The notes beneath the pieces were generated by a model, which saw only the letters and a list, made by a program, of their open reading frames with translations, was not told the DNA's origin and made no database searches. DNA of 64,000 bases, from positions 1-64,000 of the forward strand of contig JACCGJ010000296.1 of NCBI GenBank assembly GCA_013407085.1. The letters run 5' to 3'. Below, piece by piece: positions 6,281-64,000 of the stretch. This DNA is from Atriophallophorus winterbourni (lineage: Eukaryota; Platyhelminthes; Trematoda; Plagiorchiida; Microphallidae). The position numbers were made by a program, and so were the translations under genes. Numbering within the stretch: position 1 is the first letter of the stretch; every line of letters begins with the position of its first letter.

Positions 6281-7207
6281 TCAAACACGAGAGTTTAATC
6301 CGGACAGAATGACAGCTGCTCTGCCAATCCGCTTATCAATCTCCGTGTCTAGCGAGAGGTTATCTGCTATAGTTGAACCAAGGTAAGTGAAATGATATAC
6401 TGATTCAAGCTGACAGTTTCCAACAGTGATGATTGGAGGCGATACAGTCCCTTGACCAAGGACTTTGGTCTTGCTCATGCTGATTATTAGCCCAAAGTCT
6501 TTGCATGCCGACGAAAAACAGTCCATTAGAGACTGAAGGTGCTCTTCGGTGTGAGCAATAAAGGCTGCATCGTCGGCAAACAGGAGGTCACGGATTAGCA
6601 CATTTCGTGTCATGGTTTGTGCTCTCAACCGGTTGAGGTTGAAAAGCTTGCCATCACTCCGCGTGAGTAGGTAAATGCCTTTTGTTCTCGTCCTGAAAGC
6701 GTGCTTCAGAATCAGAGCAAAGAAAACTCCGAACAGCGTGGGAGCAAGAACACACCCTTGTTTGTCGCTTCGGCGAATTTCGAAGGCTTCTGAGCTGAAA
6801 CCGTTAAAATGGACTGAGCCCTTTATGCCTGAGTAGAACGAAAAAAAGATTTTGAGCAGTCTTTGGGGGCAGTCTATCAAATCAAGCATTTTGAAAAGAC
6901 CCTCCCTGCTGACGTAGTTGAATGCCTTAGTTAAATCAATAAAAACAGCGTATAATGGCATACGCTGTCCCCGATACTTTCCTTGAAGTTGCCTCAGGGA
7001 GAAGATCATGTCAACGGTTGATCTTCCCTTGCGGAAGCCACATTGAGATTCTGTGTAAATTCTATCAGCTAAAACTTGCGACCGGATCTGTAAGACTTTA
7101 GAAAACAATTTGCCTACAACATTCAGAAGGGAGATTCCTCTGTAATTGTCGCAGTCGCCTTTATATCCCTTATTCTTAAATAGTGAGATGATCTTTGTGT
7201 CTCGCAT
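6281..7207 (-). pseudogene. Reverse transcriptase core of LINE family A
   Basis: A 308-codon open frame contains the LINE RT landmarks in order: N-Y-R-G-I-S-L-L-N near residue 22, S-Q-C-G-F-R-K-G-R-S near 55, the first catalytic block F-I-D-L-T-K-A-F near 90, a K-Q-G-C-V-L-A-P block near 150, the catalytic F-A-D-D box near 215, and a thumb segment F-T-Y-L-G-S near 272. Several canonical positions differ (for example S-D-K-Q in place of G-V-K-Q), which suggests decay. Without the endonuclease and N-terminus the protein is incomplete. RT identity is certain; activity is unlikely. Confidence 0.88.
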
Positions 7208-7231
7208 CTCTTGTGGGGCACACGCCTCCTG

Positions 7232-7628: not shown

Positions 7629-8228
7629 GCCTATTGCTATTGCTATTTGCTATTGTAAATATCATTAATAATAACTAATTTTCTATCGTGATTAGAAGAA
7701 AAATAGATATCAAATAACGATACATACAAAGATAACGAGAGTATTCAATCATTACTATACGTTAATCAGTTAAATGATCAAAGCGTGAAAAATTGGTTTA
7801 CTTCGAGAACGCTTACAGCCATCAGCTCGTTAACGTCATCTTAAAGAACACTTGAATTCTCAGTTACTCATAAGCAGTCACGCACATAAAACGAAACATA
7901 CATCGAGCTTCATTTGAGAAACCAGAATCAAAACCATGCCCATTTTATTCTATCATTATTTTACAGGTCAAAATGTAATGAGACAACAGTTTATTTCAAT
8001 ATATGTTGGCTTTTACATTATAAATAAATGCCACAAACGTTGTCTTTGAATTTTAGTTTAGGTTAACAACGGAATATCCTAAAGTTTTTATGCACGGGTG
8101 ACATAAAACGCTCAATGCAGCGATCAGTTTGTCACGAAGGAATGAATTACTTGAGTTTCGATTATTTAAATCGGGAAACGAAAGCCATCATACTGAATAT
8201 TTTTCGTGCATGATCGTATTTCGATGTC
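7629..8228. other. No gene recognised
   Basis: AT-rich sequence between two LINEs on opposite strands. I see no coding region, RNA gene or repeat I can name. Confidence 0.5.
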
Positions 8229-9266
8229 TTGCAAGAATTATATCGGATTAATCTAGAAGGCCGACATCCCTCAACCGCCGACATCCCTCATTCCACCTTG
8301 CAGTGGACCGTGTCGCTAGCCCCGTCCAGTGTCAAAGAAATACGAATAGAGATCCACATACTAAAGCGACACAAGGCGCCGGGCTTGGACGAGCTACACC
8401 AGGTATTCTTCAAGGAAGGTGGCGAGTCAGTCGTAGCAGAATTGCGCGAGGTGTTCTCAAAGGTTCGGGCGGATGAGAGGGTACCTACCTCCTGGGGTGA
8501 ATTGCTAGTAATATCAGTGCATAAAAAAGGAGCGCGGAACCAATGCTGCAACTATCGCGGAATTTCGCTTATTTTGGTGGTAGCTAAGATATTGGTCGCT
8601 ATCCTCCTTCGCAGACTTACCCAGACTCGAGAGGACACTTCTCGCAAAGAGCAAGCTGGATTTCGACCAAGGCGCGGCTGTATAGACCAGATCTTCGTTC
8701 TGCGACAGTTGCTAGAACACCATCACCTGTATCAGCGACCTACCATTGTGTTGTTTCTGGATATCAGAGCTGTCTTTGACTCGGTTGACAGATCCACCTT
8801 ATGGAAATGCTTACTTTTCAATGGAATTCCATTGAAGTACGTCGCTATCCTAAAGGACCTATACGCACACTCGATAGGGAGGGTGAAGGCGTACGATAGC
8901 CTTTCAATGCCATCCAGCACCACTACAGGTGTAAGACAAGCCTGTCCAATCTCCCCGTTCTTGTTCAATTTCGCCATCGAGAACGTCCTCCAGATTGCTC
9001 TCAGTAGTTTCTCCACGGGTGGCGTTGAGCTCCTACCAGGTGAGCGGGTTATGGACCTGGAATATGCTGATGATATTGCCTTATTGGGCGAAGACCCAAC
9101 ATTTATCCAACAAGCTTTGGATGTGATGGCAATGGAGGCATCTAAGTATGGGCTGTTCTTCGCGCCAAGCAAGAGTAAAGTGCTCCTTCAGGACTGGTCT
9201 GGTGAACTGCCAAATTTTGCTATAAATGATCTGATTCTCGATCATGTTGACAGTTCAAATACCTAG
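8229..9266 (+). pseudogene. Reverse transcriptase of LINE family B
   Basis: A 345-codon open frame contains K-A-P-G-L-D-E-L near residue 48, a K-E-G-G-E block, N-Y-R-G-I-S-L near 110, E-Q-A-G-F-R-P-R-R-G near 140, the first catalytic aspartate in L-F-L-D-I-R-A-V-F-D near 180, a G-V-R-Q-A-C-P-I block near 230 and the Y-A-D-D-I-A box near 280. The Y-A-D-D box distinguishes it from the F-A-D-D of family A. Endonuclease and start of ORF2 are missing, and the frame ends in a stop just before the thumb. The RT core itself is unusually well kept. Confidence 0.88.
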
Positions 9267-10190: not shown

Positions 10191-10750
10191 GTAATGGCGG
10201 TGTTTGATTTACCATGCCTCATTTTCAAACAATGAAATTTATTTTATCAACCTGTTAATTAAATAGCATGCCGAGAGCGACCAACCAAAACATCACTTAG
10301 AAATTTTGAATTTACGATTTGTGGTTTGGCAGTAATTCTGGGTAACGAAGCTTGTTAACATGCTATGGTTTTCAATATAAGTGAAATTGTAATGAAAGCT
10401 TATTTAATTGTTAAGAATAATGTTTTGATCGATCTTTCATTCATAACGGAAAGAAAGTTGTATCCACTTGGAACAGTCTTTGGGTAACGTTGCGCTTCTG
10501 ACATAGAATAATATTCACACTAATGGTAATAGTCAGAACAGGGGACATGAGTAAGTAACACTCTACTTATGACCTCTGTTTTGACTTTACCATGAGGCAA
10601 CCTATAATTATTCTGTTTGAGAGTTGAAAGCGAATCTTTACCCAAAACCTTCACTAACAGCCTATATAGTAACATAGATTTTTCATGACAAAAGGCTTTG
10701 AAGGGTTTTTTATAACGAATTTAGCAAAAGTAGATATAATAAACAAGTTG
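10191..10750. other. No gene recognised; degenerate hairpin-repeat piece
   Basis: No coding region is supported. Around 10484-10512 the plus strand reads GGTAACGTTGCGCTTCTGAC, a shortened relative of the GAAACGTTACC hairpin repeat found on the minus strand at 12648-12684. Confidence 0.45.
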
Positions 10751-10754
10751 CGCT

Positions 10755-10942
10755 TGTATGCCACTGTTGGGTAAGGTTGGTACGACCAACCTCTTCAATC
10801 ACATAAGCCCCCACTCATGTAGACTGGGTTTAAAACCCATGACCATAAATATCAAACACATTTGCATGCATCTCCTTCACGCAAAACACATATTTATATT
10901 GAACAGGTTGTTCATACCAACCTTACCTAACAGTAGCATACA
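10755..10942. repeat. Diverged inverted repeat related to unit U
   Basis: The left arm (about 10755-10795) holds GTATGCCACTGTTGGGTAAG and a GTTGGTACGACCAAC mini-palindrome. The right arm (about 10904-10942) reads its reverse complement with several changes. The arm sequence is a diverged version of unit U at 11655, 12323, 63108 and 63774. A 25-base segment at 10857-10885 is also inverted relative to 11056-11080, just downstream of the hammerhead motif. Confidence 0.6.
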
Positions 10943-11003
10943 AGCTGAACTTGTTTACTATTCTTCCAATGTTTAAAGCGTAGGCGGATTCTGATCCTAC
11001 TGT

Positions 11004-11045
11004 TCATACCTGATGAGTGCAAGCAGCACGAAACCGGTCGTGGGG
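11004..11045 (+). ncRNA. Hammerhead-ribozyme-like core, subfamily copy
   Basis: The core CTGATGA (11010-11016) is followed by stem II GTGC/GCAC with loop AAGCA (11017-11029), then GAAA (11030-11033) and CCGGTC (11034-11039). The C-U-G-A-N-G-A and G-A-A-A boxes, the four-pair stem II and a GUC cleavage triplet are all present. Stem III could be only the self-complementary ACCGGT, as in dimer-acting hammerheads of metazoan retroelements. Stem I is weak here (three inner pairs including a wobble, then a mismatch), so activity is doubtful for this copy. Confidence 0.6.
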
Positions 11046-11099
11046 TGTGTGTGTATGTGATGGAAATGCATGCAAAATGAGTTTTTATACATATAATAA

Positions 11100-11654
11100 A
11101 ATTTAAATAACGGAACAAGACGCGGGAAAATTCAGGATGTTTGGTGAATCCAGCATATAGACACGGCCGAAAGTATTGAGTTCTCTGAGGATCTTTGCAT
11201 ACACCATTTCTCTTCGGGCTGTATATAAATAAACATTTTGGGAATAACAGCCCTAAGTTGATGCACGCTGCTGCTGAAATAAACTTTCTGGAACGTTTGC
11301 GGTCCCGTGAAGACTGCGTCGCATTTCAACGAGGGATATAAACACTTTATCTTTGTTGCCGGTAATTTATTCTCATTTCAATCCCAGAAATACAGCATCT
11401 TGAGTCAAGGATAATCACCGGATCAAAATTTTACGCTTGATATACTTTGTCTACTACCGAAACGAAATCCAATTCAGCACTGCCATACGGTTTATAATGA
11501 AGTATGCCGTCTTATTTTTTCTATTAAGATATGTTTTACTTTGAACTCTACTAAAAGTAATAATACTTTCGAATGTAATATTGTGTCCACCTCCAAATAT
11601 ATTGGTAGATATATTGTGTTGCTCACCTTCCCAGCACTTATACTCCACAAACAA
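11100..11654. other. No gene recognised
   Basis: AT-rich sequence between hammerhead-repeat pieces. Minus-strand frames at 11132-11329 and 11454-11654 carry no recognisable motif. Confidence 0.45.
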
Positions 11655-11840
11655 AGTTAGACTTGCACACCACTGTTAAATAGGGTTCGTACGACGAACC
11701 ACGATGTTCAAATAAAGAATCACAGAGTGAGGTGGAGACAGTTAGCTTATGTTCAGTGAGCCTTTAAACAGCGGTAGAGTGGTAAACAATGTTTTACTTG
11801 CATGCCACTGTTTTGTCAAACGATACCAACAGCCATGAGA
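11655..11840 (+). repeat. Unit U / hammerhead-flank / unit U tandem piece
   Basis: A copy of unit U (11655-11735, containing TAGGGTTCGTACGACGAACC) is followed directly by the sequence that normally flanks the hammerhead (GTGGAGACAGTTAG, then CAGTGAGCCTTTAAACAG), and then by the start of another U at 11792 (TTACTTGCATGCCACTGTT). The CTGATGA core is missing at the junction. The order U, hammerhead region, U implies a tandemly organised repeat whose catalytic part was deleted here. Confidence 0.6.
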
Positions 11841-12179: not shown

Positions 12180-12360
12180 TAACAGCAAATCTAAGTGATG
12201 TGTTGCTCACATCCCCCGAAATTACACTCCATTACCGGTTTCTGGCTGCTTGCCGTCATCAGGTGGAGACAGTAAGATTAGGTTCAGTGAGCCTTGAAAC
12301 AGTGGATAAATAATAGATAAGGTTATACTTGAATGCCACTGTTGCATAGGGTTTGTACAA
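12180..12360 (-). repeat. Hammerhead-bearing repeat with start of unit U
   Basis: The segment GTGTTGCTCACATCCCC (12198-12214) through the hammerhead (12226-12267), CAGTGAGCCTTGAAACAGTG and TTATACTTGAATGCCACTG (12323 on) is repeated almost word for word at 63655-63800. The strand given is that of the ribozyme. The repeat breaks off at about 12360. Confidence 0.7.
12226..12267 (-). ncRNA. Type I hammerhead ribozyme motif
   Basis: Reading the minus strand: stem I 5' arm CTCCAC, core CTGATGA (12261-12255), stem II CGGC/GCCA with loop AAGCA (three pairs and a terminal C-A mismatch), GAAA (12241-12238), stem III/cleavage CCGGTA, and stem I 3' arm ATGGAG. Stem I gives five Watson-Crick pairs next to one mismatch. 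Both ends lie in stem I, so it is type I. Hammerheads of this type are known from schistosome Sm-alpha SINE-like repeats, Penelope-like elements and metazoan retrozymes. Cleavage has not been tested. Confidence 0.65.
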
Positions 12361-14679: not shown

Positions 14680-15190
14680 ACGAAAATCATTGACAATGTC
14701 ACAAAGATTAACGTCATCGCGATTTGTCTTATTACCCCTGATTAGACAATGTGGAAATTAAGACGCGGATATTCAAACCGTTTATAGCGAACTCCCACAT
14801 GCGGGCGGTCAAATTGCGAAGGCAGGGTCGATGGCAGTCAATAAGGTGGACGGGTAGAAATCTCCACAATCTGGCGCCCGGCAGTGCGCTGACGGTAAAT
14901 AGTTATTATTCACCTTATACCTACTAGTTAAATTATTATTTTTCTTCGAAAATAGGTTAACATAACCCCTTAGTTATGTACTTTTACGCATGTGGACGCC
15001 GTGTCAATTGACCTGACCGTTTTCACTTGTATCAGATTGCTATGGATACACACTAGTAGGAAAATCGACCACTGATCTGGTCATTCCACGAGACGTGACA
15101 CACGTAGCGTACTATAGGCTGTTTAGCGGTAAGGTCAAATAAGTGGTGGTGGGTTGACGTACTTAATCATGTTCCCTGTACTGACTATCA
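14680..15190. other. No gene recognised
   Basis: No coding region, RNA or repeat is supported downstream of the protease remnant. Confidence 0.45.
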
Positions 15191-15194
15191 CCCT

Positions 15195-15310
15195 TAGTCT
15201 GACGAAGCACCTGTGTCAGAAGTGAAACGTTACCAAAAACTACTCTAACCGATTGCACTCGAATTTCCTCGCATTATGAATACACGATCGGTCCCAAACA
15301 TATTCCAATC
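15195..15310 (+). repeat. Dispersed repeat with hammerhead-like hairpin
   Basis: CTGACGAAGC at 15200 is followed by a shortened hairpin, then GAAACGTTACCAAAAACT and CTAACCGATTGCACTC, ending near AATACACGATCGGTC. The same string recurs at 17880-17990 (+). The CCGATTGCACTC part recurs inverted at about 49712. The CTGACGA box is intact here, but stem II has decayed. Confidence 0.5.
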
Positions 15311-15329
15311 GATTGCGGTCAGTTCACAT

Positions 15330-17869: not shown

Positions 17870-17998
17870 ATTGGTGTGACAAAAAAGCTTTTGTGTCAGA
17901 CGTGAAACGCTACACAAAACTGCTCTAACAGATTGCACTCACATTTCTTTGCATTATGAATACACGATCGGTCTTAAACACATTCCAATCAATTGCAG
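17870..17998 (+). repeat. Dispersed hairpin repeat inside CR1 ORF1
   Basis: The string from AAAAGCTTTTGTGTCAGACG through GTGAAACGCTACACAAAACT to CAATTGCAGG matches 15200-15310. It separates the zinc-finger part of ORF1 from the later part and so appears inserted. Confidence 0.5.
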
Positions 17999-22081: not shown

Positions 22082-22963
22082 TCAGAAGCAGAGCAAAAAA
22101 ATGCCGAACAGCGTGGGAGCAAGAACACACCCTTGTTTGACGCCTCGGCGAATTTCAAAGGCTTCTGAGCTAAAACCGTTAAAATGGACGGAGCTCTTCA
22201 TGCCTGAGTGGAACGAAATAACTAGTTTTAGCAGTCTTGGGGGGCAGCCTATCAAATCAAGCATTTTGAACAGACCCTCCCTGCTGACGTAGTCGAATGC
22301 CTTCGTTAAATCAATAGAAACAGCGTATAATGGCAAACACTGTTCCCGACACTTTTCTTGAAGTTGTCTCAGGGAGAAGATCATGCCAACGGTTGATCTT
22401 CCATTGCGGAGGCCACATTGAGATTCGGAGTAAATTCTATCAGCTAAAACTTGTAGCCGGATCTGTAAGACTTTAGCAAACAATTTGCCTACAACATTCA
22501 GAAGGGAGATTCCTCTGTAATTGTTGCAGTCGCCTCTATCACCCTTATTCTTAAATAGTGAAATGATCTTTGTTTCTCGCATCTCTTGTGGGACACACTC
22601 CTCTTGCCAGCACTGAAGAATCAAATGGTGAATCAGTTGTAATAATGCTGCTCTACCGCATTTGATGAGCTCAGGTGGAATTCCGTCGTCACCAGGGGCC
22701 TTCCCATTCGCTAAGCGGTCAATTGCTCTATTGAGCTTATCAAGAGTAGGGGGAGTATCTAGATATTCAATAGTCGGCAACCACTCGACATTTTCAAATA
22801 CATGTGGTAAAACTGTACTGTCCCTAGAGTAGAGAGAGGAGAAGTGCTCTACCCATCTTTCCATCTGCTGAGTTTTGTCCACAATCGGGTCACCAAATAC
22901 AGACTTAATGGGAGCCGTTTTAAGTTTGTTTGGACCAATGGCTCTCTTGATCACATCATACAT
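22082..22963 (-). pseudogene. Reverse transcriptase N-terminal two thirds, family A
   Basis: A 293-codon frame reads K-T-Q-Q-M-E-R-W-V-E-H-F, then G-D-D-G-I-P-P-E, N-Y-R-G-I-S-L-L-N, S-Q-C-G-L-R-N-G-R-S, S-I-D-L-T-K-A-F-D and G-V-K-Q-G-C-V-L-A-P-T-L-F. It aligns with 6281-7450. The frame ends at the deletion junction before the catalytic F-A-D-D, so it cannot be active. Confidence 0.88.
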
Positions 22964-23074
22964 GCTGTGAAAATTTCCAGTATCCGCAGCTTTTTGGATA
23001 CTAAGGCTAATTTCTTTCCAGTTGTCATTTGCACATCGCCTTGCAGTCTGTTGGACCTTATTTCTGGCTGCTCT

Positions 23075-61964: not shown

Positions 61965-62045
61965 ATACTTTTCCACCGTTTCAAGGCTCACTAAACCTGA
62001 TCTTACGGCAAACAAACAGAAACCGGTTGCAGTGTGCAAGGTACG
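61965..62045 (+). repeat. Hammerhead-repeat copy with catalytic box deleted
   Basis: TTTCAAGGCTCACTAAACC, GATCTTAC, then directly CGGCAAACAAACAGAAACCGG. Compared with the minus strand of 12226-12300, the 16 bases with stem I 5' arm and CTGATGA are missing while stem II and GAAACCGGT remain. Confidence 0.65.
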
Positions 62046-62049
62046 TGAG

Positions 62050-62520
62050 CACTCCTAGAATTGATCATTTTCAATTGATTTGATCGGCTGGATTAGATCC
62101 GCCGTGTGGATCAGTCATCAAAACGTTACATGGGTCGATCTGATTAACAGCGAATATAATCATATTGTTTCCACTTGACGCTGGAAAAGAGCCAGAATCA
62201 GATTGTGGTGTGCAAGTGCAGGGAATGCAAGCACTTCGAATAAGAGTAAGCTAAAAAATGCTATAAGTGCGACACCAGTTGCAGAGTGAGTTTCTCAAAT
62301 GAGTTAACTACATCGGCTGCTGAGAACAGAAATACCTGTCGTCTTCTATGACCTATATCGTGTTGAAAATTTTCTGATCAACGTTATGTAAAATGCCCAA
62401 CTAAGAGAATTTCACACGCCACGCGGAAGAAAGTAAAAAATTAATCAAAATTGAAAGCTGCAACATAAATACTGAGCGTTCCGAAACGGGTAGTTTCAGT
62501 TCAGAGAGACACTGGTTACC
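62050..62520. other. No gene recognised
   Basis: Diverged traces of the same repeat (GATCGGCTGGATTAGATCC, GTGTGGATCAGTC) are possible at 62085-62130; nothing else is supported. Confidence 0.35.
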
Positions 62521-62910: not shown

Positions 62911-63107
62911 AATCGACGATTTTTGCTATTATCGAATATCTCCCATATCAATTCAAAAATGATTAAGTTTTAAATAACCGAATACGGAAACTTATTTCTT
63001 CTATCAGATCAAATAGGTGTATTATCGCGTTCGTTTGTTCTTTAGACATCTGTTCCATCAATTTGGAATCACAACTCAAGCTTTTTTAAGAATATGAATT
63101 CAAAAGT

Positions 63108-63205
63108 TTTACTTGAATGCTACTGTTACATAGGGTTCGTACAACGAACTACGATGTTCAAACACAGAATCACATAGTGATTCTTGGTCAAGCACATGAA
63201 GCGCT
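63108..63205 (+). repeat. Unit U, full copy
   Basis: TTACTTGAATGCTACTGTTA, TAGGGTTCGTACAACGAAC, GATGTTCAAACACAGAATCA and GTGATTCTTGGTCAAGCAC. The same unit is present in inverted form at 63833-63926. Confidence 0.75.
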
Positions 63206-63650
63206 CATGAGTGGTCAATGTAATATCCGTCACGCTTATCGCTACGCAAATTAGTGGACACCAGCTTTACTCATTTTTCATCCTTTTTATTATTCCATCA
63301 TTGGAACATTATGGTTTAAAATGGAATATTGTGGACCGATGGATTTACGGTGGCATTTTAATTGGGGATCTCGTTCGAAAGGTTACCTTCGGGCAACAAA
63401 CTTGTAAAATGCTAATACACTACACCACAATCATATAATATGTGCAACCTTTACGCCTCGGTATTTACTCCATACATAGGAATACCGTTAACATAGTCGG
63501 ATGTTAGCAGTGGAAATTTGAGTCGATTGCCACAATGTGGGCGCAAAGGGGATCGTTCCATACATTTTCGTGAAATTCATAAAAAAAATAGGTTTCGTTC
63601 ATGCAACGGTTTAAAACGAGTGTATAATTAGAGTCGAATACCAAAGTAAA
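63206..63650. other. No gene recognised between repeats
   Basis: The short frames 63211-63438 (+) and 63504-63710 (-) show no motif; the second overlaps the hammerhead repeat. Confidence 0.4.
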
Positions 63651-63654
63651 GTGT

Positions 63655-63773
63655 TGCTCACATTCCCCGAAATTACACTCCACTACCCGTTTCTGGCTAT
63701 TTACCGTCATCAGGTGGAGACAGTAAGATTACGTTCTGTGAGCCTTGAAACAGTGGATAAATGGTAAACAAGG
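63655..63773 (-). repeat. Hammerhead-bearing repeat
   Basis: Matches 12198-12322 nearly word for word (GTTGCTCACAT, GAAATTACACTCCA, GTGGAGACAGTAAGATTA, GTGAGCCTTGAAACAGTGG). It is followed directly by unit U. Confidence 0.72.
63678..63719 (-). ncRNA. Type I hammerhead ribozyme motif, best copy
   Basis: Minus strand: stem I CTCCAC (63719-63714) pairs perfectly with GTGGAG (63683-63678), six Watson-Crick pairs. Core CTGATGA lies at 63713-63707. Stem II is CGGT/GCCA around AAATA (two GC pairs, a wobble, and a terminal C-A mismatch). GAAA is at 63693-63690, and CGGGTA precedes the predicted cut after A at 63684 (GUA triplet). The outer stem I pair, mismatched at 12226-12267, is intact here. Stem III is at most a couple of pairs, as in retroelement hammerheads thought to act as dimers. 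Confidence 0.7.
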
Positions 63774-63926
63774 TTATACTTGAATGCCACTGTTGCATAG
63801 GGTTCCTACAACGAACCACAATGTTTAAACGCCTTGAGTGCTTGACCAAGAATCACTATGTGATTCTGTGTTTGAACATTGTAGTTCGTTGTACGAACCC
63901 TATGTAACAGTGGCATTCAAGTATAA
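63774..63926. repeat. Palindrome of unit U with 57-bp arms
   Basis: Arms 63774-63830 and 63870-63926 match at 53 of 57 positions around a 39-base loop, which itself holds the small hairpin AGAATCAC/GTGATTCT. The arms are two inverted unit U pieces. It directly follows the hammerhead repeat. Confidence 0.92.
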
Positions 63927-64000
63927 AAGCTGAATACATTTTGCCATCTTGACCCCATTTATCTCGAGATATCGTAACACATGAAGAAGTTGAGATTCGT

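What the first reader, a model, noticed from the sequence alone, without database searches (positions are those of the whole stretch)
63655..63926. Hammerhead ribozyme next to a long palindrome: retrozyme or Penelope pseudo-LTR candidate
A type I hammerhead core with a perfect six-pair stem I lies 55 bases from a palindrome made of two inverted unit U copies. Established: such minimal-stem-III hammerheads occur in Penelope-like elements, schistosome Sm-alpha repeats and metazoan retrozymes. Inference: unit U plus the hammerhead segment forms one mobile repeat. The unit composition and the inverted join are not something I can match to a described family.
Basis: partly seen in the sequence, partly recalled or inferred. 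Interest (0 to 1): 0.75.

Follow-up and report, generated by a model that had tools for sequence, protein, structure and literature searches.

The report
Hammerhead repeat with Penelope-style inverted tail
This is one worn copy of a short, non-coding mobile repeat carrying a self-cutting RNA motif in what is probably a fluke genome, and the way its copies are inserted suggests that the machinery of another mobile element, Penelope, copies it.

Summary
On the minus strand, 63678-63719 carries a type I hammerhead core with a six-pair stem I; 54 bases away lies a palindrome with 57-base arms, 93% complementary. The copy is worn, and no Rfam hammerhead model recognises it.

It belongs to an interspersed family of 241-bp head-to-tail units (a non-LTR retrozyme) with a 233-bp sister family. 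One sister copy scores 32.9 bits as Rfam Hammerhead_1 (E 1.8e-4, cut-off 34). The window's family has a C.A mismatch at pair 10.1-11.1 in 52 of 57 copies.

The palindrome is explained. RNA-3' ends of family-1 copies cluster about 42 and about 156 nt after the ribozyme cut. In 15 of 23 inverted copies both outer ends lie at these sites, and 9 of the 23 are bounded by target-site repeats. 'Unit U' is the stretch between the two sites, inverted at the 5' end.

Penelope-like elements in the same genome also end at two sites (6 and 11 of 20 sampled) and make the same inverted inserts. Best reading: a retrozyme mobilised by Penelope-type machinery, with cDNA primed on both target strands. That link is proposed in print; in what I read it was not shown. 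The evidence is structural only.

The parts
63642..63927 (-). Whole retrozyme insert (head-to-head): inverted tail plus one partial sense unit
   Evidence: outer ends at u44 (site A) and u151 (site B); exact limits set by the candidate target-site repeat
63640..63833 (-). Sense cDNA piece, unit positions u93 to u44 through the ribozyme; RNA 3' end at the low coordinate (site A)
   Evidence: 92% to unit
63678..63719 (-). Type I hammerhead ribozyme motif; predicted cut between 63684 and 63683; C.A mismatch at 10.1-11.1
   Evidence: 60.2 bits with own model R1, which was built with this copy; no Rfam hammerhead hit
63827..63926 (+).
63774..63830 (+). Left arm of palindrome
63870..63926 (+). Right arm of palindrome
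   Evidence: 93% complementary, 39 nt between arms
63632..63641 (.). Candidate target-site repeat, left (AGTCGAATAC)
   Evidence: 8 of 10 identical to 63928-63937, 6 in a row; below the 7-base criterion
63928..63937 (.). Candidate target-site repeat, right (AGCTGAATAC)
63106..63193 (-). Separate solo tail piece of the same family (u65-u152, ends at site B)
12193..12360 (-). Second family-1 copy; ribozyme 12227-12268; ends at u40 (site A); 8-base flank repeat ACTTAGAT
   Evidence: 62.3 bits with R1, built with this copy
10740..11049 (+). Family-2 (233-bp unit) copy with inverted piece ending at v151 (site B); ribozyme 11004-11045
11649..11811 (-). Worn family-1 fragments, one ending at u159 (site B)
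14743..15316 (+). Fragment of the Penelope-like element ending at p434 (its site B)
17871..17996 (+). Penelope-like fragment ending at p434 (its site B)

Best explanation
The feature is one old copy of a non-autonomous, non-LTR retrozyme: a 241-bp tandem-unit, non-coding repeat with a type I hammerhead ribozyme, in what is probably a digenean fluke genome. Proposed mechanism. (1) A multi-unit transcript is cut by the hammerhead, at least at some units (inferred). (2) The reverse transcriptase/GIY-YIG endonuclease of a Penelope-like element uses it in trans (inferred). (3) The enzyme cuts both target strands, and each strand primes a cDNA starting at one of two internal sites, A (about 42 nt after the ribozyme cut) or B (about 156 nt after it). 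The end clusters are shown; that they are start sites is inferred from published Penelope biochemistry. (4) When both strands are extended, two cDNAs are laid down head-to-head and joined over a short overlap or a short filler, giving an insert with both RNA-3' ends outward, bounded in the better-kept cases by a short target repeat (structure shown). Where one cDNA starts at A and the other at B, the stretch between A and B (unit U) appears inverted next to itself: that is the palindrome. In the window's family the ribozyme carries a C.A at 10.1-11.1 and may cleave poorly.
For: Tandem units of 241 bp and 233 bp, interspersed, GC 45-46%, longest open frame 98 and 118 aa in four tandem units. 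Hammerhead: of copies within 8 mismatches of a family pattern, core plus GAA is intact in 43 of 57 family-1 and 14 of 23 family-2; 86.5% of cells paired against 28-52% for slid versions, and 30 cells changed on both sides against 10.5 shuffled (0 of 500, 57 of the 80 copies given); Rfam Hammerhead_1 E 1.8e-4 for a family-2 copy. Two end sites: of 67 family-1 RNA-3' ends, 34 in u34-51 and 20 in u138-164 (uniform expectation 5.0 and 7.5), against 1 and 4 of 27 5' ends; family 2: 7 and 4 of 19 (expectation 1.5 and 2.2). With windows chosen on half of the loci, held-out family-1 ends fall in them 73% of the time on average (lowest split 57%) against 18% (highest 34%) for random ends. Inverted inserts: 23 of 23 have RNA-3' ends outward; 15 have both outer ends at the sites (12 A+B, 3 A+A), 7 one, 1 none. 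Flank repeats of 7 bases or more: 13 of 63 inserts against a mean of 0.84 (maximum 3) in 200 shuffles; 9 of the 23 inverted inserts, for example 14 bases around L029:4686-5135. Same genome: Penelope-like element with RT domain and a GIY-YIG-type C-terminus, frames up to 825 aa, 14,935 first-look candidates, found in a 2.84-kb tandem; its 3' ends fall at p383-394 (6 of 20) and p430-437 (11 of 20); one inverted copy ends at p430 on one side and p394 on the other, with the same 12 bases (CATCTGAATACT) flanking both (L055/L056); L029 has a Penelope copy with its tail inverted. Site A lies 35-46 nt after the Penelope ribozyme cut as I place it, u34-51 in the retrozyme. In one locus (L043) an inverted Penelope-like tail piece (p423-345, 71%, E 3e-9) directly abuts the 5' end of a retrozyme insert, as if both RNAs had been used in one event (one case, found late). 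Print: Penelope inserts with an inverted pLTR, a 31-bp tail and an 8-10 bp target repeat (PMC3846280, passages); the Anolis Penelope protein cuts and extends both strands and starts cDNA at two internal sites that bound the tail (PMC11167929, first part and passages).
Against: No significant sequence similarity between retrozyme and Penelope start sites: the best site-A pair is equalled by 132 of 2,840 Penelope windows; site-B pairs show nothing. The A-to-B distance is about 114 nt in the retrozyme and about 40 nt in Penelope. The end bins were drawn from the same data (answers this in part), and family 2's site B alone is not significant (4 of 19, P 0.17). The 40 loci were chosen by a query that is itself a head-to-head palindrome, so neither 23 of 63 nor 23 of 23 outward is a genome-wide rate (3 of the 23 are family-2 inserts, not what the query matched). 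50 of 63 inserts show no exact flank repeat of 7 bases, the window copy among them (6 exact, 8 of 10 with mismatches), and the repeats counted may include a few bases of the insert. Two covariation measures do not exceed shuffles (pairs with a double change 3 against 3.7; pair types 13 against 13.0). Apart from L043, retrozyme flanks are not enriched in Penelope: 3 of 126 flanks (L043 included) against 17 of 378 random pieces. The rotifer paper prefers self-priming on an antisense template, not two-strand priming, for Penelope's inverted junctions and reports an insert without target repeat. In published in vitro tests point mutants of the Penelope hammerhead did not affect insertion, so the ribozyme's role is unproven. 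The Penelope hammerhead here was assigned by eye; Rfam finds none in L049 at E<=5. No transcripts were examined.
Confidence: 0.7

Rival explanations
1. The 241-bp units are pseudo-LTRs, or decayed internal parts, of a second autonomous Penelope family not met here, so the element is a Penelope rather than a separate retrozyme.
For: Penelope pseudo-LTRs carry hammerheads and form tandems and inverted joins; insertion grammar is the same.
Against: No blastn similarity to the Penelope unit; arrays run H-U-H-U without a long ORF. The Penelope pieces that lie in fetched retrozyme loci (for example L023, L026, L029, L033) match the L049 family and, except in L043, were not seen to abut a unit. A search for other Penelope families did not complete.
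Confidence: 0.15
2. A LINE (RTE or CR1 type, present in the window) mobilises the repeat, and the inverted copies are ordinary twin-priming products.
For: Frames that look like LINE reverse transcriptases lie in the window and flanks (by eye); junctions with short overlaps or fillers resemble twin priming.
Against: In LINE twin priming (recalled) the second primer site varies, yet the outer end of the inverted piece mostly sits at the same two sites (15 of 23 with both ends there); I saw no regular poly(A) or simple-repeat 3' tail (by inspection).
Confidence: 0.12
3. A satellite or foldback/MITE-like DNA element, with palindromes made by DNA rearrangement.
For: Tandem arrays and palindromes exist.
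Against: In A+B inserts the outer ends differ, so there are no terminal inverted repeats; flank repeats of varied length around whole palindromes; 5' ends vary while 3' ends cluster.
Confidence: 0.03

Closest known systems
Metazoan non-LTR retrozymes (Cervera and de la Pena 2020, PMC7229834; coral, mussel, axolotl)
   Same: Type I hammerhead in short tandem units (RNAs of about 170-400 nt) from dimers upward, low GC, no LTR, target repeats over 4 bp when present.
   Different: No inverted inserts or tail in the parts I saw ('inverted' occurs 0 times in its main text); mobilisation by Penelope is only suggested. Family 1 here has a C.A at 10.1-11.1. Circular RNA not tested here.
Schistosoma hammerhead repeats: W-elements (PMC8490949), Sm-alpha (recalled), Sj-alpha (seen as a reference title)
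   Same: Fluke short repeats with type I hammerheads; hammerhead function, a possible target-site duplication and intra-element inverted repeats are mentioned for W-elements (passages).
   Different: No sequence comparison was made; two end sites or a Penelope-like tail were not in the passages seen.
Penelope-like elements (PMC3846280, PMC11167929)
   Same: Inverted 5' piece, optional tail between two start sites, 8-10 bp target repeats in some inserts, hammerhead upstream of the start sites.
   Different: They encode RT and GIY-YIG endonuclease; the repeat does not. Tail 30-40 nt there, about 114 nt here.

Membership tests
Metazoan non-LTR retrozyme | Type I hammerhead motif in the unit | tested here: met
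   but family 1 (window) is not recognised by Rfam
Metazoan non-LTR retrozyme | Short tandem units (150-450 bp), dimers to multimers, interspersed | tested here: met
   241 and 233 bp; up to 790-794 bp in one run
Metazoan non-LTR retrozyme | Low GC (text: below 50%; figure legend: below 45%), no LTR or ORF | tested here: met
   GC 0.45 and 0.46 in the two units, just above the legend's 45%; longest frame 98 and 118 aa in four tandem units
Metazoan non-LTR retrozyme | Target-site repeats longer than 4 bp | tested here: met
   13 of 63 at 7 bases or more; shuffled mean 0.84, maximum 3
Metazoan non-LTR retrozyme | Self-cleavage and circular RNA | not testable with these tools
   needs RNA work; 6 of 27 family-1 5' ends within 15 nt after the cut (P 0.006, post hoc) hints at past cleavage
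Penelope-like element | ORF with RT and GIY-YIG endonuclease | tested here: not met
   unit without such an ORF; an unseen autonomous parent is not excluded
Penelope-like element | Sequence of the local Penelope pseudo-LTR | tested here: not met
   no blastn match to L049
Penelope insertion grammar (works like) | Two clustered RNA-3' ends bounding a tail | tested here: met
   family 1; family 2: only site A significant; Penelope in the same genome:
Penelope insertion grammar (works like) | Inverted 5' piece within one target-repeat-bounded insert | tested here: met
   9 of 23 inverted inserts with a flank repeat of 7 or more; Penelope pair L055/L056
Penelope insertion grammar (works like) | Shared sequence at the start sites | tested here: not met
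Penelope insertion grammar (works like) | Penelope protein uses the repeat RNA | not testable with these tools
   biochemistry needed; the L043 chimera is only a hint

The most novel reading that the evidence does not exclude
Animal retrozymes are parasites of Penelope machinery that mimic the hammerhead-plus-tail region of Penelope RNA: the hammerhead fold sets where the Penelope reverse transcriptase starts (about 40 nt downstream in both), which would explain why a hammerhead is kept even in a family whose ribozyme is likely weak.
Probability: 0.3. Interest if true: 0.8.

Novelty: new variant of a known kind. Interest (0 to 1): 0.56.

Why it matters
Which enzyme copies animal retrozymes was left open in the papers that I saw: two from 2020 name Penelope-like elements as likely candidates because both have type I hammerheads, both occur in tandem and they co-occur. 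Insertion scars of the Penelope type in retrozyme copies are more direct evidence and give a test that can be run on any genome. They also show that retrozyme palindromes need not be assembly faults. If the hammerhead positions the reverse transcriptase, that would give the ribozyme a role beyond cutting.

Tried and rejected
Rfam on the window: no hammerhead; the microRNA-precursor matches over the palindrome lie far below their cut-offs and are taken as hairpin chance. Sequence homology between retrozyme and Penelope start sites: not significant. Within-insert unit identity as a test of a circular RNA template: 27 of 34 family-1 and 4 of 6 family-2 comparisons exceed the mean of other inserts, but rows are not independent and a multi-unit DNA source would do the same; inconclusive. 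Retrozyme flanks searched for Penelope: no general enrichment. One search counted ribozyme copies with a search option that skipped copies and with stem II and III pairs misindexed; replaced. Searches failed on script errors. An arbitrary 7-kb stretch held no copy.

Rows dropped before counts: loci L011, L015, L019, L034, L036, L040 (taken as the same insertions as other loci), inserts under 82% identity, under 60 bp, or within 40 bp of a locus end. One search dropped the same six loci and L049, and kept only copies within 8 mismatches of 42. One search took 57 of those 80. In one search all 20 rows were counted, although L067 shares its flank with L056 and L063 with L058; without those two the counts are 5 and 10 of 18.

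Not obtained: genome-wide copy number, a genome-wide end census, a search for other Penelope families, the species.

Full report
What is there. The minus strand of 63678-63719 carries a type I hammerhead core (CTGATGA ... GAA) closed by six pairs of stem I, predicted to cut between 63684 and 63683. Fifty-four bases away lies a palindrome with 57-nt arms, 93% complementary. No Rfam family reaches its gathering score in the window, and no hammerhead appears in 63601-64000 at E<=10.

The genome. The window is part of an unnamed 537-Mb assembly of 15,840 contigs. Of 902 proteins matching the Penelope reverse transcriptase of this genome, 120 were listed. The best carry no name; among those with a name, flukes rank high (Dicrocoelium dendriticum 56% identity, Clonorchis 50%, Opisthorchis 48%), with one bacterial-bin record (48%), corals and fishes also present. 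A digenean fluke is likely. The species was not identified.

The family. A search of the assembly with 63655-63926 scored 40 of 3,595 first-look candidates and returned 108 matching pieces. I fetched stretches around all 40 loci. Copies form head-to-tail arrays of 241 bp: hammerhead segment (119 bp), U (101 bp) and about 21 bp more. A sister family of 233 bp, represented by L029, shares the hammerhead and the stretch upstream of it but little else. I number units along the ribozyme strand from the predicted cut (u1, v1).

The ribozyme. In 57 family-1 and 23 family-2 copies (all within 8 mismatches of a family pattern) the core plus GAA is intact in 43 and 14. Across 57 distinct sequences, 86.5% of cells pair, against 28-52% when partners are slid; 30 cells changed on both sides, against 10.5 in shuffles. 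These come almost wholly from two pairs, one in stem I (U-A to C-G) and one in stem II (G-C to U-A), that differ between the families, so there is about one event each; the number of pairs with a double change (3) and of pair types (13) does not exceed shuffles. The support for the fold is real but modest. Of 7 loci given to Rfam, family 2 was found in three: L029:5057-5098 as Hammerhead_1 at 32.9 bits, E 1.8e-4, just below the cut-off of 34, and five more copies at 25-27 bits. No family-1 copy was found there. Family 1 has C.A at pair 10.1-11.1 in 52 of 57 copies, which may explain that. G10.1-C11.1 is usual in hammerheads (recalled), so family 1 may cut poorly.

Where copies end. From the 40 loci and the window's contig I took 63 inserts after dropping duplicates, worn copies and edge cases. 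Their RNA-3' ends cluster: of 67 family-1 ends, 34 lie in u34-51 (median about 42) and 20 in u138-164 (median about 156), with 5.0 and 7.5 expected if uniform. Of 19 family-2 ends, 7 and 4 lie in the same bins (1.5 and 2.2 expected; the second is not significant, P 0.17). Of 27 family-1 and 13 family-2 5' ends, 1 and 4, and 1 and 2, lie there. Because the bins were drawn from these data, I chose windows on random halves of the loci and scored the other half: 73% of held-out family-1 ends fell inside on average (lowest 57%), against 18% (highest 34%) for random ends.

The palindrome. All 23 inverted inserts kept point their RNA-3' ends outward. In 15 both outer ends lie at the two sites (12 A+B, 3 A+A), in 7 one does, in 1 none. 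The query was itself such a palindrome, so the share of inverted inserts and their orientation are biased by the choice of loci; 3 of the 23 belong to family 2. Unit U (about u51-u151) is the stretch between sites A and B. When one cDNA starts at A and the other at B, U meets its own inverse; the window copy (u44 and u151) is of this kind. Junctions range from 4-base overlaps to 23-base fillers. Flank repeats of 7 or more bases are found at 13 of 63 inserts (shuffled flanks: mean 0.84, maximum 3), 9 of them around whole palindromes. The clearest is L029:4686-5135, 99% identical to the family-2 unit taken from that same locus, with a 14-base repeat, 3 bases of which lie in the insert end. So the palindrome can be made in one insertion. 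The window copy has only a worn candidate repeat (AGTCGAATAC/AGCTGAATAC).

Penelope in the same genome. A Penelope-like element is abundant (14,935 first-look candidates, 150 scored, frames up to 825 aa) and occurs in a 2.84-kb tandem (L049). Pfam finds an RT domain in it. The GIY-YIG domain was recognised by eye; Pfam did not report it in the L049 frame but does in some homologues, such as the Dicrocoelium one. I fetched the 3' flanks of 20 of the 150 copies: ends fall at p383-394 in 6 and at p430-437 in 11; 3 lie elsewhere (two of the 20 look like duplicates). L055 and L056, the two ends of one inverted copy, end at p430 and p394 and share a 12-base flank repeat, CATCTGAATACT. L029 has a Penelope copy with its tail inverted, and two Penelope fragments in the window end at p434. 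By eye, the pseudo-LTR has a minimal hammerhead (CTGACGA ... GAA, cut near p348; Rfam does not find it), which puts site A 35-46 nt after the cut, as in the retrozyme (u34-51), and site B 82-89 nt after it. In the anole element the cut is 26 and cDNA starts 111-118 nt into the ORF, about 85-92 nt apart (and my arithmetic).

A possible chimera. In L043 an inverted, 71%-identical Penelope tail piece (p423-345, E 3e-9) directly abuts a retrozyme insert that starts at u12 and ends at site A (u39). If one protein complex had used both RNAs, this is what would be left. It is one case, found late, from a diverged Penelope; otherwise retrozyme flanks are not enriched in Penelope (3 of 126, L043 included, against 17 of 378 random pieces).

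Comparison with print. Penelope inserts with an inverted pseudo-LTR, an optional 31-bp tail and 8-10 bp target repeats are described in a rotifer; the authors also report an insert without target repeat and favour self-priming on an antisense template for the inverted junctions (PMC3846280, passages). The anole protein cuts and extends both target strands and starts cDNA at two adjacent internal sites bounding the tail; point mutants of its hammerhead did not change insertion (PMC11167929, first of four parts and passages). Animal retrozymes are defined in PMC7229834 (first two of six parts and passages); it and PMC7761336 (passages) name Penelope as a likely mobiliser. My literature searches listed no paper that I recognised as reporting Penelope-type tails or inverted joins in retrozymes; most listed papers were not read, and most subscription journals are not held.

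Mechanism and limits. Best reading: retrozyme RNA, partly cut by its hammerhead, is taken by a Penelope protein; both target strands are cut and each primes a cDNA from site A or B; the two are joined head-to-head. The end sites, inversion and flank repeats are shown here; the enzyme, the RNA and any role of cutting are inferred. Two-strand priming rather than self-priming is also inferred; in L029:4686-5135 the two arms differ more (95.4% over 65 nt) than the tandem units (98.2% over 113 nt), which fits two templates but is one case. Against the reading: no sequence similarity at the start sites, a longer tail (about 114 against about 40 nt), most inserts without a detectable target repeat, and the biased sample. 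A census and a search for other Penelope families did not complete.

Noticed in passing
window 61991-62032 (+) and 62169-62210 (+): Two degenerate hammerhead-like matches to the family model (17.0 and 18.7 bits), probably old retrozyme remains.
   Followed up: no
window 6281-7231 (-), 8214-9266 (+), 22082-23074 (-): Long frames that look like LINE reverse transcriptases (recognised by eye).
   Followed up: no
L043:2591-2939: Inverted, diverged Penelope-like tail piece joined directly to the 5' end of a retrozyme insert; possible chimeric insertion.
   Followed up: partly
L033, L034, L036: What looks like the same retrozyme insertion (u6-u34, same flanks) occurs three times beside Penelope pieces, so it was probably carried along by later duplication.
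   Followed up: partly
L029:4686-5135: Young-looking family-2 insertion whose two cDNA arms differ (95.4% over 65 nt) more than its tandem units (98.2% over 113 nt): perhaps two different RNA templates.
   Followed up: partly
L010, L014, L022, L029, L031 and others: Flank repeats often run 1-6 bases into the RNA-3' end of the insert, as if the cut DNA end annealed to the RNA at the start site; a search for the longest match favours this and no control was done.
   Followed up: no
window 63802-63898: Weak MIR2600 and mir-4 precursor matches (32.4 and 24.2 bits, cut-offs 98 and 70) produced by the palindrome.
   Followed up: yes
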